A stretch of DNA of 64,000 nt. Origin: an uncultured Siphonobacter sp. Its GTDB lineage: Bacteria; Bacteroidota; Bacteroidia; Cytophagales; Spirosomataceae. The stretch lies in the NCBI GenBank assembly GCA_913774715.1, contig CAJYHS010000099.1, positions 1 through 64,000 on the forward strand, given 5' to 3'. Positions 913-12,607 of this stretch are shown here, piece by piece (within the stretch, counting starts at the first letter, position 1; each line of letters starts with the position of its first letter). Below the pieces are notes generated by a model. The model ran no database searches and was not told the origin of the DNA. It saw only the letters and a list, made by a program, of their open reading frames with translations. A program made the translations under genes and the position numbers.

Positions 913-1617
913 TTATCCTAATTGGCGGGCTACTACAAAAGCGGCCGCGGCAGCTGCCGCACCAGTAAACATGACTTTCAGGGCTCCTGCTAAAGGAGGC
1001 TGACCCGTTACTTTACTTTTAAAGTACCCAAAAATAAACAGGCATACTAAGGTAATCAAAGAGGAGACCGTGAGTGACTGGACTGGGGTTGGCAGAAAAA
1101 AATAGGGTAACAGGGGAATGAGTCCACCCAGTGCGTAGGAAAGACTAATCGTCCAGGCACTCTTGCCGGCCTGAGCCGGGTCAGGTTTTTGCAGGCCCAG
1201 TTCTAATTTCATCATGAAATTAATCCATTTTTCTTTGTCAGTTGCTAACTGTTCGACGGCCTGCAGTTGCAGCTCTGGACTCAGACCCATTTCTTCAAAA
1301 ATGAGTCGAACCTCTTGCTTTTCCTGTTCGGGCATGGTTTCCACCTCCTGGCTTTCTCGGCTTAATTCTGAGTTATAATGATCTATTTCGGTTTGGGCGG
1401 ATAAATAACCTCCCAAACCCATAGCTATTGAACCAGCTACAATCTCAGCTATACCCGCCGTGACAATTAAGCTGGAATCATGAACGGCTCCGGATAATCC
1501 CGCGGCCAGGGCAAACGGAACCGTCAAGCCGTCAGACATGCCAATGACGATATCGGCAATAAATACCGAACTGGTTAAATGATGCTCCGAGTGGCCACTC
1601 ATGCGTTCATTCTTCAT
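913..1617 (-). CDS. VIT1/CCC1-family iron/manganese transporter
   Basis: A 234-residue membrane protein of the VIT/CCC1 family, which moves Fe2+/Mn2+ out of the cytoplasm. The N-terminal region VFIADIVIGMSDGLTVPFALAAGL is the family signature of the first membrane helix. A second helix contains GSIAMGLGGYLSAQTE. An acidic cytoplasmic domain rich in E and M follows (about 80-140), which in this family binds metal. Three more hydrophobic segments lie at the C terminus. Its start overlaps the stop of the upstream adaptor gene by 11 bp, suggesting translational coupling and a shared role in metal efflux. It is the last gene of the pump operon. The exact metal cannot be read from sequence. Confidence 0.88.
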   Translation of the reverse strand: MKNERMSGHSEHHLTSSVFIADIVIGMSDGLTVPFALAAGLSGAVHDSSLIVTAGIAEIVAGSIAMGLGGYLSAQTEIDHYNSELSRESQEVETMPEQEKQEVRLIFEEMGLSPELQLQAVEQLATDKEKWINFMMKLELGLQKPDPAQAGKSAWTISLSYALGGLIPLLPYFFLPTPVQSLTVSSLITLVCLFIFGYFKSKVTGQPPLAGALKVMFTGAAAAAAAFVVARQLG

Positions 1618-2761
1618 TATTGTTGAGTTTAGAAACCAGGCTATAGGCTCCTTGAAGGGCTATAGTATTTTCCGAAAGATTGAAGGAAGTGGGCAGCTCA
1701 ATGGCAACAAAACCTTGATGACGAAGCCCCGTTTTAATTTCCTCTTGACGGAAAGTATAGCCCTGCTTTGGTGTTTTCTTTTCCAAAATGTAGATATAGT
1801 TTTTGCCCGAGAAATGCACGATTGCCGTTTCTGGCAATGCCCAGTGGAGTTGAGATTCCAGGGTAATTTGTGCCGTGACGTAACTACCGGCAATGAGCTC
1901 TTCTACCGGCCCTTGTGGTTTAGCTAGAACGGTGATGGTACGATCCGGATTGATAGATTTATTAAGGGAAGTAATCCAGCCTTGATGCGCCTGGTTGGGA
2001 TTGTCTCCAATGCCAAAGGTGATTTTTTGTCCTACTTTTAAAGATAAGATATCTTTTTCATAAACGCTTAACTCTACCCGAACCGAAGCTGGGTTTATGA
2101 TTTCTAAGATTACATCACTTGGATTGACGAAGCGTCCTTTATTGGCAGTAATGCGAGTGATAACGCCAGAAATAGGGGCGGGGATAAAAACGGATTTGAC
2201 AAAGGTAGCCGGCGAGAGTTGACGGGGGGTAATTTTTAAAAGCCGAAGGCGTTGATCCAGTCCAGCCAGCTGGGCCTCCAAACTATGAAGAGTGGATGAG
2301 GCTTGTTGAAGTACCCGACCGGCATTGATATTTTCCCGGCTTAACTCCTGTTCCCGGTCAAATTCCTGCTGGGCAAAGAGAACTTTGGCTTTTAAATCCA
2401 GGTAGTCCTGTTGCAGCTGGATGAACTCGGGGTTTTCCAGTTCAAAGAGGGGTTGCCCCTGACGAACGCTCATACCCGGCTCTAGCTTGATTTGTTTAAT
2501 ATAGCCCCCTAGGGGCGCAATGATCGAAACCAGATCATTAGCGGGCACTTGCAGGGTTCCGTTGACTTTTAGATTCCTGGGCATGGCTTGTTGACTTAGC
2601 TTGCCTAGTTGCAAGCCGGCCACCTGAGCCTGTTGAGTGGTAATACTTACTTGAGTGCTTACCTGAGCTGGGGCCGAATCCGTGGATGGTGCCTGAGGTT
2701 GTTCACAATTACTAAATAGTAGTACGAGTGAAACTAGAGCGATCAAAAAAGAGAATTTCAT
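1607..2761 (-). CDS. RND efflux periplasmic adaptor (CzcB/CusB-like membrane fusion protein)
   Basis: A 384-residue membrane-fusion protein. It begins with a lipoprotein signal ending in LLFSNC, so it is likely lipid-anchored. A barrel-sandwich segment follows (IIAPLGGYIKQIKLEPGMSV), then an alpha-helical hairpin around 120-165 (LQQDYLDLKAKVLFAQQEF), the second lipoyl half (FIPAPISGVITRITANKGRFV) and beta-barrel/MP domains. It should bridge the inner-membrane pump encoded just upstream to an outer-membrane channel. It lies 18 bp downstream of the RND pump and overlaps the VIT gene. No His-rich N-terminal metal-binding segment is present. No TolC-type channel gene lies in this operon, so it presumably recruits one encoded elsewhere. 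Confidence 0.92.
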   Translation of the reverse strand: MKFSFLIALVSLVLLFSNCEQPQAPSTDSAPAQVSTQVSITTQQAQVAGLQLGKLSQQAMPRNLKVNGTLQVPANDLVSIIAPLGGYIKQIKLEPGMSVRQGQPLFELENPEFIQLQQDYLDLKAKVLFAQQEFDREQELSRENINAGRVLQQASSTLHSLEAQLAGLDQRLRLLKITPRQLSPATFVKSVFIPAPISGVITRITANKGRFVNPSDVILEIINPASVRVELSVYEKDILSLKVGQKITFGIGDNPNQAHQGWITSLNKSINPDRTITVLAKPQGPVEELIAGSYVTAQITLESQLHWALPETAIVHFSGKNYIYILEKKTPKQGYTFRQEEIKTGLRHQGFVAIELPTSFNLSENTIALQGAYSLVSKLNNNEE

Positions 2762-2779
2762 AGCAAAACAGGGGATGGA

Positions 2780-5700
2780 TTAATGGCTAGGGCGTGAGGG
2801 TTGAGTCTCCAGATACGAGTAGAGAATGGGCAAGACGATGAGTGTAAGCAGAGTAGCCGTGAAGAGTCCACCCATGACAACGGTGGCCAGGGGCTTCTGA
2901 ACTTCGGCGCCCGCTGAGTTCGAAAGAGCCATGGGAAGAAAGCCAAAGGAAGCCACTAATGCCGTCATCACCACCGGTCTGAGTCGAATGGCTGTTCCCC
3001 GAACAATGACTTCGTTGATAGCCTGAATTCCTTCTTGGTCTCGGAGCCGATTAAACTCGGCAATAAGGACAATACCATTGAGCACGGCTACTCCGAACAG
3101 TGCAATAAAACCCACGCCTGCCGAAATGCTAAAGGGCATGCCTCTTAGGTAAAGCGCCGCGACCCCGCCAATGGCAGCCATGGGAATGGCCATGAAGATG
3201 AGTAGACTTTGACGGATGGATTTAAAGCTAAAGAACAAGAGTAGCAGAATAAGTCCCAGCGCAACGGGAACGGCAAAGAGAAGACGACTCTTGGCTTCCA
3301 CTAAGTTTTGAAACTGTCCTCCGTAAGTAATCGAGTAGCCGGCGGGAAAACCCACGTGCTGACTGATTTTTTGCTGGAGTTCAGCGATCATACTTTCGAC
3401 GTCACGGCCCCGAACGTTAAAACCCAGGGTAATGCGTCGGTGGGTGTTATCGCGTTGAATCTGATTGGGTGCTTGTTGGAGACTGATTTTAGCAATTTGG
3501 CCCAGCGGAAGTTGCTGACCCGTAGGCGTGGAAACATACACATTGCCTACATCTTCGATGCTTTGGCGTTTACTGGCCTCTAATCGAACCACGAGATCAA
3601 AGCGCTTTTCGCCCTCAAAGACCAGGCCAGCGGATTGCCCAGCAAAGGCAGTGTTGATGACCCGGTTGACATCTGATATGTTCATGCCATACTTAGCAAG
3701 TAAGTTTCGGTCTAATTCAATGAGAATCTGGCTCAAGCCCCCTACCTGTTCCTGATAGAGGTCCTGGGCTCCCGTGATGGTTTTGATTTGACTGCGTACT
3801 TGATGGGCTAGTCTTTCTAGCTGAGCGAGATCCTCTCCGTAAATTTTAATAACTACATCCTGACGGGCACCGGTCATGAGTTCGTTAAAGCGCATTTGGA
3901 CGGGTTGCTGAAATCCAAAGGTTACTCCGGGGATGACCGATAGAGCCCGGGCCATTTTTTCGGCTAATTCATCGCGCGTTGAGGCCGAAACCCATTCTGT
4001 TTTGGGTTTAAGAATGACCATTAAATCAGAGGCTTCAATGGGCATGGGATCCGTTGGAATTTCTCCGGATCCAATCTTTCCCACCACCTGCTCGACTTCC
4101 GGAAAAGATTTTAACAGGATGCGCTCAGCCATCAGCGTCGCATTGACGGTTTGGGAAAGCGAGCTTCCCGTTAAGGTTCGAGTATCGACGGCAAAATCGC
4201 CTTCGTCCAGCTGGGGAATGAATTCACCTCCCATTTGGCTAAAACCGTAAATTGATGCGACAAACAAACCCAGTGCGGTAAGCAAAATTAGACCCCGGTG
4301 GGCTAGTGATCGCCGCAAAAGGGGTTCATACCAGGTTTGTAAGCGCTCCATGAGTCGATCTGACCAGGTACGCTGGGGCTGACTTTGCTTGCTGAGAAAC
4401 AAAGCAGAAATCATCGGAACGTAGGTTAGCGATAGAATGAAAGCTCCCAGAATAGCAAAGGCAACGGTTAAGGCCATGGGTTTGAACATCTTGCCTTCGA
4501 TGCCTGAAAGCGCCAGGATGGGCAAATACACAATGAGAATGATGATCTCTCCAAAAGCGGCTGAGGAGCGAATGCGCGCGGCTGAGTGAAATACTTCTTC
4601 ATCCATTTGCAATTGGGTGAGTCGCTGAGAACGCTGATTCAAGGCCAGGTGATGAAGCGTCGCTTCGACAATGATCACGGCTCCGTCGACAATGAGGCCA
4701 AAGTCAATGGCGCCTAAACTCATGAGATTACCCGAGACGCCAAAGAGATTCATCAAGGCAATGGCAAACAAAAGCGAGAGCGGAATCACTGATGCGACAA
4801 TCAAGCCCGCCCGCACGTTTCCCAGCAGAATAACCAAGACTACGATAACGATGGTAGCTCCTTCCAATAGATTTCGCTCTACGGTACCAATGGCACTATT
4901 GACCATCTTCGTGCGGTCCAGGAAAGGGACAATTTCAACGCCCTGCGGCAGTGTTTTCTGAATTTGATTGATTTTTTCCTTGACGCGGGTAATGACGGCG
5001 GAAGAATTTTCACCTTTGACCATCATCACCACTGCACCGACGGTTTCTCCCTGGCCGTTTCGGGTGACGGCTCCGTAGCGTACGGCTGAGCCTATACGTA
5101 CGCTGGCTACATCGGATACGCGAATGGGAAGTCCTTGGTCATTCAATCGAATGACGATGTTGGCAATGTCTGTCTTGGAATTAATCAAGCCACTGGATCG
5201 AATGAAAAAGGCATTGGGCTGCTGATCAATGTAGGCTCCGCCCGTATTTTGATTATTCGTTTCCAGAGCCGTCAGCAGCTCCTGAACTGTAATGCCCATG
5301 CTGCGCAGGTGATCGGGATCCAGGGCAATCTCATACTGTTTGACCAGACCTCCGAAGCTACTCACATCGGCTACCCCCGGCGTACCCAGCAGACTGCGCC
5401 GGATCATCCAATCTTGAATGGTGCGCAACTCCGAAAGGCTATAGGTTCTTTCGTAGCCTTTTTTCGTCGCAAGCGTATATTGGAAAATTTCACCCAGACC
5501 CGTGGTAACCGGAGCCATACTGGGCGTGCCTACGTGGGGTGGAATCTGCGCGCTAATGCTTTGCAGGCGTTCGGCAATTTGTTGACGAGCCCAGTACACA
5601 TCCGTTGATTCGGAAAAAACGACGGTGACAATGGATAACCCAAAACGGGAAAAGGATCGCAGCTCGGTCAATCCCGCAATGGTAGATAAACTCACTTCAA

Positions 5701-5905
5701 CGGGAACGGTAACCAACCGCTCCATGTCTTCGGCCGCCAGTGAGGGGCTGCTGGTGATGACTTGAACCTGATTGTTGGTAATATCGGGTACGGCATCAAT
5801 GGGAAGCCTGGCAACCGAGTAGATGCCCCAGCTAATCCAGCCTAGTAAGGCCAAACCAATGATGAGCTTATTCTGAATAGAAAAGCGTATAATGGCATCA
5901 AGCAT
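2780..5905 (-). CDS. CzcA-like heavy-metal efflux RND transporter
   Basis: A 1041-residue pump, the usual length for heavy-metal efflux RND proteins. An N-terminal helix (MLDAIIRFSIQNKLIIGLALL) is followed by a periplasmic porter domain, a central membrane block, a second porter domain (RTLTGSSLSQ region) and the final membrane block ending in VLPILYSYLE. The TM4 motif DFGLIVDGAVIIVE (about residue 401) is the divalent-cation (Zn/Co/Cd, HME1-type) form rather than the copper/silver form, so CzcA is favoured over CusA. It uses proton motive force and works with the adaptor encoded next. Unlike many Bacteroidota CzcA proteins it has no C-terminal TolC fusion. It follows a small His-rich protein gene. 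Confidence 0.93.
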   Translation of the reverse strand: MLDAIIRFSIQNKLIIGLALLGWISWGIYSVARLPIDAVPDITNNQVQVITSSPSLAAEDMERLVTVPVEVSLSTIAGLTELRSFSRFGLSIVTVVFSESTDVYWARQQIAERLQSISAQIPPHVGTPSMAPVTTGLGEIFQYTLATKKGYERTYSLSELRTIQDWMIRRSLLGTPGVADVSSFGGLVKQYEIALDPDHLRSMGITVQELLTALETNNQNTGGAYIDQQPNAFFIRSSGLINSKTDIANIVIRLNDQGLPIRVSDVASVRIGSAVRYGAVTRNGQGETVGAVVMMVKGENSSAVITRVKEKINQIQKTLPQGVEIVPFLDRTKMVNSAIGTVERNLLEGATIVIVVLVILLGNVRAGLIVASVIPLSLLFAIALMNLFGVSGNLMSLGAIDFGLIVDGAVIIVEATLHHLALNQRSQRLTQLQMDEEVFHSAARIRSSAAFGEIIILIVYLPILALSGIEGKMFKPMALTVAFAILGAFILSLTYVPMISALFLSKQSQPQRTWSDRLMERLQTWYEPLLRRSLAHRGLILLTALGLFVASIYGFSQMGGEFIPQLDEGDFAVDTRTLTGSSLSQTVNATLMAERILLKSFPEVEQVVGKIGSGEIPTDPMPIEASDLMVILKPKTEWVSASTRDELAEKMARALSVIPGVTFGFQQPVQMRFNELMTGARQDVVIKIYGEDLAQLERLAHQVRSQIKTITGAQDLYQEQVGGLSQILIELDRNLLAKYGMNISDVNRVINTAFAGQSAGLVFEGEKRFDLVVRLEASKRQSIEDVGNVYVSTPTGQQLPLGQIAKISLQQAPNQIQRDNTHRRITLGFNVRGRDVESMIAELQQKISQHVGFPAGYSITYGGQFQNLVEAKSRLLFAVPVALGLILLLLFFSFKSIRQSLLIFMAIPMAAIGGVAALYLRGMPFSISAGVGFIALFGVAVLNGIVLIAEFNRLRDQEGIQAINEVIVRGTAIRLRPVVMTALVASFGFLPMALSNSAGAEVQKPLATVVMGGLFTATLLTLIVLPILYSYLETQPSRPSH

Positions 5906-10509: not shown

Positions 10510-11226
10510 ATGACCGATACGTTTTTATCAGCGAAGTGGGAAAATCTTATCATGGCTAACTATGCCGTAAGTCCAGAAGTATTAAAACCCTATTTGCCCC
10601 AAGGGGTTGAACTGGATTTTCACGATGGCAAAGTTTATGTAAGCCTCGTTGGTTTTATGTTCAAAGAAACCAGCCTGTTTAAAATTCCCATACCATTTTT
10701 TGGAACATTTGAAGAAATCAATCTCCGGTTTTACGTAAAGCGGATGGAAGAAGGAACTGAAAAACGGGGGGTGGTTTTTATCAATGAGTCCGTTCCGTAT
10801 AAATCAGTAGCCTGGCTGGCCAACAAATTATATAAAGAACACTACATTTCTATAGCTACAAAGCACTCCATTCAAGTAGGAAAAAGGGATAAGCAAATAA
10901 AATATGAATGGGAAATAAACAATACCTGGAATCACCTGGCTGTGAACGCTTCTACTGAAAAAAGTGAAATGTTAAGGGGCAGCATAGAAGAATTCATTTT
11001 TGAGCATTACTACGGATATACAAAAATTAATAACCGACTTTCTCAGGAATATAAAATTCATCATCCAAGGTGGCTGGTGAATAAAGTAACAGATTATTCT
11101 ATTTATTGTGACTTTGCATCCATGTATGGAAATGACTATGCCTTCTTGAATAATCAGAAACCTGATTCAGTTATTTTAGCCGAAGGATCGCCGGTTAATG
11201 TTAAATGGAAACGAACAAATTTCTAA
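10510..11226 (+). CDS. DUF2071 / YqjF-like protein
   Basis: A 238-residue protein matching the DUF2071/YqjF family. The N terminus LSAKWENLIMANYAVSPEVL followed by LPQGVELDFHDGKVYVSLVGF is the family's characteristic opening (X-A-x-W-x-x-L, then P-x-G-x-x-x-D). It is cytoplasmic, with no signal or membrane segment. The biochemical function is unknown. It is the first gene of a very tight plus-strand trio: the next ATG is 9 bp after this stop. Its partners (TIGR03643 and a photolyase-like protein) suggest a light- or flavin-linked role, but that is inference from context. Confidence 0.88.
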   Translation: MTDTFLSAKWENLIMANYAVSPEVLKPYLPQGVELDFHDGKVYVSLVGFMFKETSLFKIPIPFFGTFEEINLRFYVKRMEEGTEKRGVVFINESVPYKSVAWLANKLYKEHYISIATKHSIQVGKRDKQIKYEWEINNTWNHLAVNASTEKSEMLRGSIEEFIFEHYYGYTKINNRLSQEYKIHHPRWLVNKVTDYSIYCDFASMYGNDYAFLNNQKPDSVILAEGSPVNVKWKRTNF

Positions 11227-11235
11227 ACGACGATA

Positions 11236-11505
11236 ATGGATCGAAAAGATATTGACAGGATAATAGAAATGGCCTGGGAAGACAGAACACCATTTGAAGC
11301 CATTGAAATACAATTCGGTATTTCGGAAGCTAATGTGGTTTCACTAATGCGAAAAGAGTTGAAACGCAGCAGTTTTAATTTGTGGCGAAAACGGGTAAAT
11401 AGCGGCATCAGTCAAAAGCATTCTAAAAAAAGAAATGCTGAAATAACACGGTTTAAATGCAATCTGCAAAAAACCATATCAATGAATAAAATAAGCAAGC
11501 GATAA
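11236..11505 (+). CDS. TIGR03643 family protein
   Basis: An 89-residue basic protein. The core DRIIEMAWEDRTPFEAIEIQFG followed by ISEANVVSLMRKELKRSSFNLWRKRV matches TIGR03643, a small helix-turn-helix-like family usually encoded next to cryptochrome/photolyase-related genes. The first half looks like a sigma-70 region-4-type HTH, so nucleic-acid binding is possible. The C-terminal tail is Lys/Arg-rich. Its stop is one base from the next ATG, so it is almost certainly translated together with the photolyase-like protein downstream. Confidence 0.85.
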   Translation: MDRKDIDRIIEMAWEDRTPFEAIEIQFGISEANVVSLMRKELKRSSFNLWRKRVNSGISQKHSKKRNAEITRFKCNLQKTISMNKISKR

Positions 11506-11506
11506 A

Positions 11507-12607
11507 ATGAACGGGTCTTTTGAAACAGATTACGAAACCATACTCCGAAAGGTCGATGAGATTGATCCCCTTCAATATGCAAGAACCAGAAATTATATTA
11601 ACGGAGCAGTAACCCATTTATCACCTTACATTTCAAGGGGTGTTATCAGCACCAAACAGGTACTGAATAGTGTACTTGAAAAAGGATATGATTCACGACA
11701 AATTGAAATTTTTATAAAGGAGTTGTGCTGGCGTGACTATTTTCAAAGGGTAGCCCAGCACAAGAATCTAGACCAGGATATAAGGCAGCCGCAGCAACCC
11801 GTATCAAACTATGAAATACCTGTCAGCATAATAAAGGCAACCACGGGAATAGAGGGCATTGATGAGGCAATTAAGGAATTATACAATACGGGCTATATGC
11901 ACAATCATTGCAGAATGTATACGGCTTCCTTGGTTTGCAACATTGCCAAATCTTACTGGTATCAGCCGTCCCGATGGATGTACTATCATTTATTAGATGG
12001 TGACTGGGCCAGTAATTCGTGTAGCTGGCAATGGGTAGCTGGTAGCAACAGTAATAAAAAATATTATTTTAATCAGGAGAATATCAATAAATATACACAA
12101 ACAAGTCAGTCAAATACATTTTTAGATACCTCGTATGAAGCCATACAGTCTATGGAAACCCCTGCTTCATTAGTGTTTACACAAGAGTTTATTCCTGAAA
12201 TAAACCTGCCTTCATTCACCCCCATACACATTGATTCCTCACTACCAGCTTTTATTTACAATTATTATAACCTGGACCCAACCTGGCATAAAGAAGTACC
12301 GGGAAACAGGATATTATTAATCGAACCTGATTTTTTCTCGAAATATCCAGTTAGTAGACGGTGCATAGATTTTATGCTGTCACTAAGTAAAAATATTCCT
12401 GGTGTACAAGTATATACAGGTTCCTTTCAATCCCTGGTTAACGAGTATAAATTTGAAAGCATTTTCTACAAAGAACATCCGCTTAATACGGGTTATACAG
12501 GAACTGAAGAATCCAGAGATTGGATTTCCCATGAGACTACCGAGTACTATTCTTCTTTTTTTGGATACTGGAAAAAAATTGAAAAGCAGTTATTTAAGGC
12601 AAACTAA
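11507..12607 (+). CDS. Photolyase/cryptochrome-like FAD-binding protein with FAD domain first
   Basis: A 366-residue protein. Residues about 10-215 match the C-terminal FAD-binding domain of photolyases: FIKELCWRDYFQRV, then TGYMHNHCRMYTASLV and YYHLLDGDWASNSCSWQWVAG, the equivalents of the canonical TGWMHNRLRM and GDLAANNGGWQW boxes. The N-terminal alpha/beta antenna domain that normally precedes this is absent. Instead an alpha/beta-looking segment follows (NRILLIEPDFFSKYP, then PGVQVYTGSFQSLVNEY). This suggests domain permutation or an unrelated C-terminal domain. The canonical Asn-His-Arg context is altered (MHNHCRM). Repair activity is uncertain; a light-sensing role is possible. Confidence 0.82.
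   Translation: MNGSFETDYETILRKVDEIDPLQYARTRNYINGAVTHLSPYISRGVISTKQVLNSVLEKGYDSRQIEIFIKELCWRDYFQRVAQHKNLDQDIRQPQQPVSNYEIPVSIIKATTGIEGIDEAIKELYNTGYMHNHCRMYTASLVCNIAKSYWYQPSRWMYYHLLDGDWASNSCSWQWVAGSNSNKKYYFNQENINKYTQTSQSNTFLDTSYEAIQSMETPASLVFTQEFIPEINLPSFTPIHIDSSLPAFIYNYYNLDPTWHKEVPGNRILLIEPDFFSKYPVSRRCIDFMLSLSKNIPGVQVYTGSFQSLVNEYKFESIFYKEHPLNTGYTGTEESRDWISHETTEYYSSFFGYWKKIEKQLFKAN

What the first reader, a model, noticed from the sequence alone, without database searches (positions are those of the whole stretch)
11507..12607. Photolyase-like protein with the FAD domain at the N terminus
The FAD-binding domain that is C-terminal in photolyases occupies residues 10-215 here, and an alpha/beta-looking segment (NRILLIEPDFF..., GVQVYTGSFQSL) follows it. 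This suggests circular permutation or a new domain combination. It is locked in an operon with TIGR03643 and DUF2071 proteins of unknown function, so the trio may be a light-linked module that has not been characterised.
Basis: partly seen in the sequence, partly recalled or inferred. Interest (0 to 1): 0.7.

Follow-up and report, generated by a model that had tools for sequence, protein, structure and literature searches.

The report
Reversed-domain photolyase of a known class
The gene encodes a light-driven DNA-repair enzyme (photolyase) whose two halves come in the reverse of the usual order; this layout is real but was published in 2020-2022 for other bacteria, and what is less documented is its tie to a small, unstudied neighbouring gene (DUF2805).

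Summary
ORF 11507-12607 (366 aa) has the photolyase FAD domain at its N terminus (PF03441, E 5.5e-23) and a separate small alpha/beta domain at its C terminus (AlphaFold model, pLDDT 95). A Deinococcus relative carries the normally N-terminal photolyase domain (PF00875) after the FAD domain. In a profile-profile test the window family's own C-terminal domain also leans to that domain (probability 41, against at most 1.3 for 31 unrelated decoys).

It is not new. Inverted-topology photolyases are a described class: NewPHL (2020), SPL (2021) and cyanobacterial Phr4-7 (2022). The window protein belongs to a well-supported Bacteroidota branch of the FAD-first clade. All mapped FAD/CPD-contact residues are invariant, so it is most likely an active CPD photolyase, perhaps for single-stranded DNA (inferred).

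The "trio" is partly right. DUF2805 (TIGR03643) is strongly tied to this gene: all 19 genomes with the enzyme have it, and it lies directly upstream in 34 of 76 loci. DUF2071 is an occasional member (13 of 72). Related clusters add a flavin reductase, an SDR and up to two conventional photolyases. DUF2805's function remains unknown.

The parts
11507..12607 (+). Inverted-topology (FAD-domain-first) photolyase, 366 aa
11507..12181 (+). FAD-binding catalytic domain, residues 1-225; holds E72, W75, N133, M137, N170, W174, W176 (E. coli Phr E274, W277, N341, M345, N378, W382, W384)
   Evidence: Pfam, structure alignment, residue mapping, invariance
12242..12604 (+). C-terminal small alpha/beta domain, residues 246-366; reduced counterpart of the photolyase N-terminal (PF00875) domain
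   Evidence: Model; hhalign to canonical N-terminal domains with decoy control; Deinococcus relatives
11236..11505 (+). DUF2805 / TIGR03643 protein, 89 aa, basic C-terminal tail; conserved partner gene
   Evidence: co-occurrence, adjacency
10510..11226 (+). DUF2071 protein, 238 aa; occasional first gene of the same cluster
   Evidence: adjacency 13 of 72 loci

Best explanation
The protein is a Bacteroidota member of the inverted-topology photolyases (NewPHL/SPL class). SHOWN by sequence or model: the complete helical FAD domain comes first, a shortened photolyase-type alpha/beta domain comes last, it falls within the FAD-first clade on a FAD-domain tree, and the mapped residues that contact FAD and a CPD in E. 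coli photolyase are invariant. INFERRED: it binds FAD, is photoreduced through W174-W151, and repairs cyclobutane pyrimidine dimers by light-driven electron transfer. As in the characterised NewPHLs, the substrate is probably single-stranded or flipped-out DNA, and the C-terminal domain covers the FAD site rather than holding a strong antenna pigment. The gene is probably transcribed in a short operon with DUF2805, a photolyase-associated small protein that may assist or regulate repair.
For: Domain content and order. Deinococcus relatives with PF00875 after the FAD domain, E 7e-4, 1e-3 and 2e-4 (the last as a separate ORF annotated with a 4-bp overlap). Profile match of the Deinococcus C-terminal domain to canonical N-terminal domains, probability 96.3, E 1.5e-9; of the window family's domain, probability 41 against a decoy maximum of 1.3. 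FAD-first proteins form one side of a 100/100 branch. Active-site residues map one to one and are invariant in 50 homologs. Literature on the class. Partner gene.
Against: No member of the Bacteroidota branch has a tested activity that I could find. Pfam PF00875 does not itself hit any of the 50 Bacteroidota proteins, and the C-terminal homology is moderate. A fold search with the C-terminal domain alone could not be run. The outer tryptophan of the classical triad (E. coli W306) is replaced by P98. Single-strand specificity is carried over from other branches.
Confidence: 0.82

Rival explanations
1. It is a cryptochrome-like blue-light sensor without repair activity that signals through the DUF2805 protein next door.
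For: Tight gene pair with a small basic protein; DUF2805 is present in every sampled genome with the enzyme.
Against: The CPD-contact residues (E72, W75, N133, M137, W176) are invariant in 50 homologs, which a pure sensor would not need. DUF2805 also sits next to conventional photolyases in genomes without this gene, and no known DNA-binding fold was found for it.
Confidence: 0.1
2. The C-terminal segment is an unrelated alpha/beta domain fused to a photolyase FAD domain (a new domain combination rather than domain reversal).
For: PF00875 does not detect it in any Bacteroidota member; it lacks a helix between strands 1 and 2.
Against: The same slot holds a recognisable PF00875 domain in Deinococcus relatives, and the profile match to canonical N-terminal domains stands well above decoys.
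Confidence: 0.1
3. A conventional photolyase gene truncated at its 5' end or mis-called.
For: The PF03441 match covers only 1-137 of 203 profile positions.
Against: Length and start are conserved across dozens of genomes; the stop codon of DUF2805 ends 1 bp before the start codon; the structure shows a complete FAD domain.
Confidence: 0.01

Closest known systems
NewPHL (Emmerich et al. 2020, NAR 48:12845; Dinoroseobacter shibae, Methylobacterium mesophilicum)
   Same: N-terminal FAD domain, C-terminal short photolyase-like domain; no Fe-S cysteines in the Phr7-type members; conserved active-site Asn (N170 here).
   Different: The Bacteroidota proteins form their own well-supported branch; their C-terminal domain is hard to align with the alphaproteobacterial one; a different gene neighbourhood (DUF2805 instead of DUF3429 / UbiB-like kinase / FAD oxidoreductase).
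SPL, short photolyase-like (Xu et al. 2021; Rhodococcus fascians, S. elongatus SePhrC)
   Same: [quoted passage not shown] resembles class I/III in FAD and substrate regions.
   Different: No Fe-S cysteine set (present in the Deinococcus relatives). The literature summary says the domain is lacking, whereas relatives here carry it at the C terminus.
Phr4/Phr5 and Phr6 of marine Synechococcus/Cyanobium (Haney et al. 2022, PMC9426592)
   Same: Reverse domain order, sometimes split into two ORFs, as in Deinococcus sp. QL22.
   Different: They carry the four Fe-S cysteines and a domain that InterPro recognises as a photolyase domain; the window protein has neither.
Class I CPD photolyase (E. coli Phr)
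   Same: FAD domain fold and the mapped lesion-contact residues.
   Different: Opposite domain order; full antenna domain; complete Trp triad.

Membership tests
NewPHL / inverted-topology photolyases | Catalytic FAD domain at the N terminus | tested here: met
NewPHL / inverted-topology photolyases | C-terminal domain derived from the photolyase alpha/beta domain | tested here: inconclusive
   Model shows an alpha/beta domain; profile probability 41 against decoys at most 1.3, but no Pfam hit and no fold search of the domain alone
NewPHL / inverted-topology photolyases | Groups with other FAD-first proteins, not with conventional classes | tested here: met
Prokaryotic 6-4 rows were left out of that tree; when included they fell among the FAD-first proteins on a very long branch
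NewPHL / inverted-topology photolyases | Light-dependent CPD repair in single-stranded DNA | not testable with these tools
   Active-site residues are consistent
SPL (short photolyase-like) | No N-terminal alpha/beta domain | tested here: met
SPL, Fe-S subtype | Four conserved cysteines for a 4Fe-4S cluster | tested here: not met
   Cysteines present in Deinococcus relatives, absent in the window protein
Class I CPD photolyase | N-terminal PF00875 domain followed by the FAD domain | tested here: not met
Prokaryotic 6-4 photolyase (FeS-BCP) | PF04244 N-terminal domain and Fe-S cysteines | tested here: not met
   No PF04244 match anywhere in the window's genome; cysteines absent

The most novel reading that the evidence does not exclude
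DUF2805 is a dedicated partner of photolyases in Bacteroidota (a lesion-handling or light/UV regulatory protein). DUF2805 plus inverted photolyase, flavin reductase, SDR and conventional photolyases would form an undescribed multi-gene photorepair module.
Probability: 0.4. Interest if true: 0.5.

Novelty: new member of a known kind. Interest (0 to 1): 0.33.

Why it matters
It extends inverted-topology photolyases to a distinct, widespread Bacteroidota branch. The conserved neighbourhood gives the unstudied DUF2805/TIGR03643 family its first concrete functional link (photolyases and flavin reduction) that I could find. The Deinococcus relatives show that the 'missing' alpha/beta domain of SPL-like proteins can sit at the C terminus.

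Tried and rejected
Literature: TIGR03643 gave no papers and DUF2805 none about photolyases; 'circular permutation' with photolyase found nothing relevant; DUF2071 with photolyase, none. The primary NewPHL and SPL papers are not held, so their content is taken from citing papers and my own knowledge. Viral contigs: no relatives. DUF2805 against PDB sequences: no significant match. Promoter and terminator scans were not above shuffled controls. The first comparison of the C-terminal domain with single neighbouring photolyase groups was too weak to use; its 'class I' set was mis-extracted and was redone. Truncation and mis-call were considered and rejected because of conserved length and gene spacing. 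No fold match is reported for residues 226-366, as whole-model searches were filled by the FAD domain; absence there says nothing.

Full report
Observation. The ORF at 11507-12607 on the + strand encodes 366 aa. Pfam places FAD_binding_7 (PF03441) at residues 69-198 (E 5.5e-23) with nothing before or after it; PDB sequence matches of note are all to the C-terminal half of photolyases and cryptochromes. A 50-sequence alignment gave a model with mean pLDDT 95.1 and pTM 0.92. Residues 1-225 align with the whole FAD domain of solved photolyases (Thermus 1iqr, residues 171-413; Z 15.9, rmsd 3.0, 215 aligned). Residues 246-366 form a separate small alpha/beta domain.

Domain order. Among plasmid records the nearest FAD-first relatives outside Bacteroidota are in Deinococcus and Alphaproteobacteria. 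In Deinococcus sp. AJ005 (456 aa) Pfam finds FAD_binding_7 at 102-218 and then PF00875, normally the N-terminal domain, at 300-395 (E 7e-4). D. psychrotolerans agrees (E 1e-3), and in Deinococcus sp. QL22 the two domains are two consecutive ORFs, annotated with a 4-bp overlap, the second matching PF00875 at E 2e-4. These matches lie below Pfam's curated cut-off, but a profile-profile comparison of the Deinococcus C-terminal domain with N-terminal domains of conventional photolyases gives probability 96.3 and E 1.5e-9 over 119 columns. For the Bacteroidota branch the same comparison gives probability 41, E 2.8e-4 over 77 columns in the matching register; 31 unrelated neighbour families give at most 1.3. 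PF00875 itself hits none of the 50 Bacteroidota members. I conclude that the C-terminal domain is most likely a reduced version of the antenna domain; this is strong for Deinococcus and moderate for the window's branch.

Kinship. On a FAD-domain tree (43 rows, 193 columns) all FAD-first proteins (Bacteroidota, Alphaproteobacteria, Deinococcus) lie on one side of a 100/100 branch, and the 18 Bacteroidota-type rows, the window included, are one 100/99 group. Prokaryotic 6-4 photolyases were left out of that tree because of their extreme branch length; with them in they fell among the FAD-first proteins, a placement I do not trust. In the class sample about one genome in ten has a full-length copy (19 of 198, my count of the rows with full-length matches). 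Nearly all of the 80 named loci are Bacteroidota, with a few labelled Chlorobiota or Kapaibacterium.

Active site. Mapped to E. coli Phr (crystal numbering in brackets), the window has E72 (E274), W75 (W277), N133 (N341), M137 (M345), N170 (N378), W174 (W382), W176 (W384) and W151 (W359). All are invariant in 50 homologs except W151 (48 of 50). The outer triad Trp (W306) is not conserved (P98). The Fe-S cysteine set of the Deinococcus relatives is absent. That these residues serve CPD binding and FAD reduction in photolyases is established knowledge; that they do so here is inference.

Neighbourhood. DUF2071, DUF2805 and the enzyme follow each other with gaps of 9 bp and 1 bp. In the named loci DUF2805 lies directly upstream on the same strand in 34 of 76 with enough upstream sequence, mostly 3-7 bp away; DUF2071 in 13 of 72; a flavin reductase directly downstream in 26 of 70; a conventional photolyase within 4.5 kb in 27 of 44. 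Frequent extended order: SDR, DUF2071, DUF2805, this enzyme, flavin reductase, DASH-like photolyase, prokaryotic 6-4-type photolyase (the names of the last three are my reading of the sequences). In the 198-genome sample all 19 genomes with the enzyme have DUF2805, against 67 of 198 overall (hypergeometric 2e-10; relatedness not corrected, although many families are involved). In loci where DUF2805 is not directly next to this enzyme, 14 of 48 have a photolyase within 6.5 kb (one of the 14, L173, is this same enzyme nearby), against roughly 1% expected by a crude estimate. DUF2805 is therefore photolyase-associated. Its function is unknown; the PDB has no significant sequence relative.

Literature. 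Haney et al. [quoted passage not shown] 2020 to be single-strand CPD photolyases in D. shibae and M. mesophilicum. A 2026 paper (PMC13274461) treats 'NewPHLs or SPLs' as one class with inverted domain topology. [quoted passage not shown] The primary NewPHL and SPL papers were not available. The finding is thus a new member of a known kind.

Verdict. Ordinary as a class, well supported as an observation. The remaining open and testable point is what DUF2805 contributes.

Noticed in passing
L119:2896-4187 (Deinococcus sp. QL22 plasmid): The inverted photolyase is split into two consecutive ORFs, annotated with a 4-bp overlap: FAD domain, then alpha/beta domain; it resembles the Phr4/Phr5 split reported in marine Synechococcus.
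   Followed up: partly
L120, L124, L125 (Alphaproteobacteria plasmids): FAD-first photolyases there sit beside a DUF3429 gene (all three), and in Asticcacaulis also an NAD(P)/FAD oxidoreductase and a UbiB-type kinase, a different recurrent neighbourhood from Bacteroidota.
   Followed up: no
L165-L219 (DUF2805 loci of other genomes): DUF2805 without the inverted photolyase next to it sometimes precedes an SDR and a flavin reductase, in part with conventional photolyases.
   Followed up: partly
fold search of window protein: Chain Ff of 7pub (Trypanosoma brucei mitoribosomal small-subunit assembly intermediate) aligns with the FAD domain at Z 15.6, suggesting a photolyase-like assembly factor.
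   Followed up: no
window 913-5905 (-): From reading the translations: an RND heavy-metal-efflux-type pump and adaptor genes beside a VIT-like membrane protein; unrelated to the finding.
   Followed up: no
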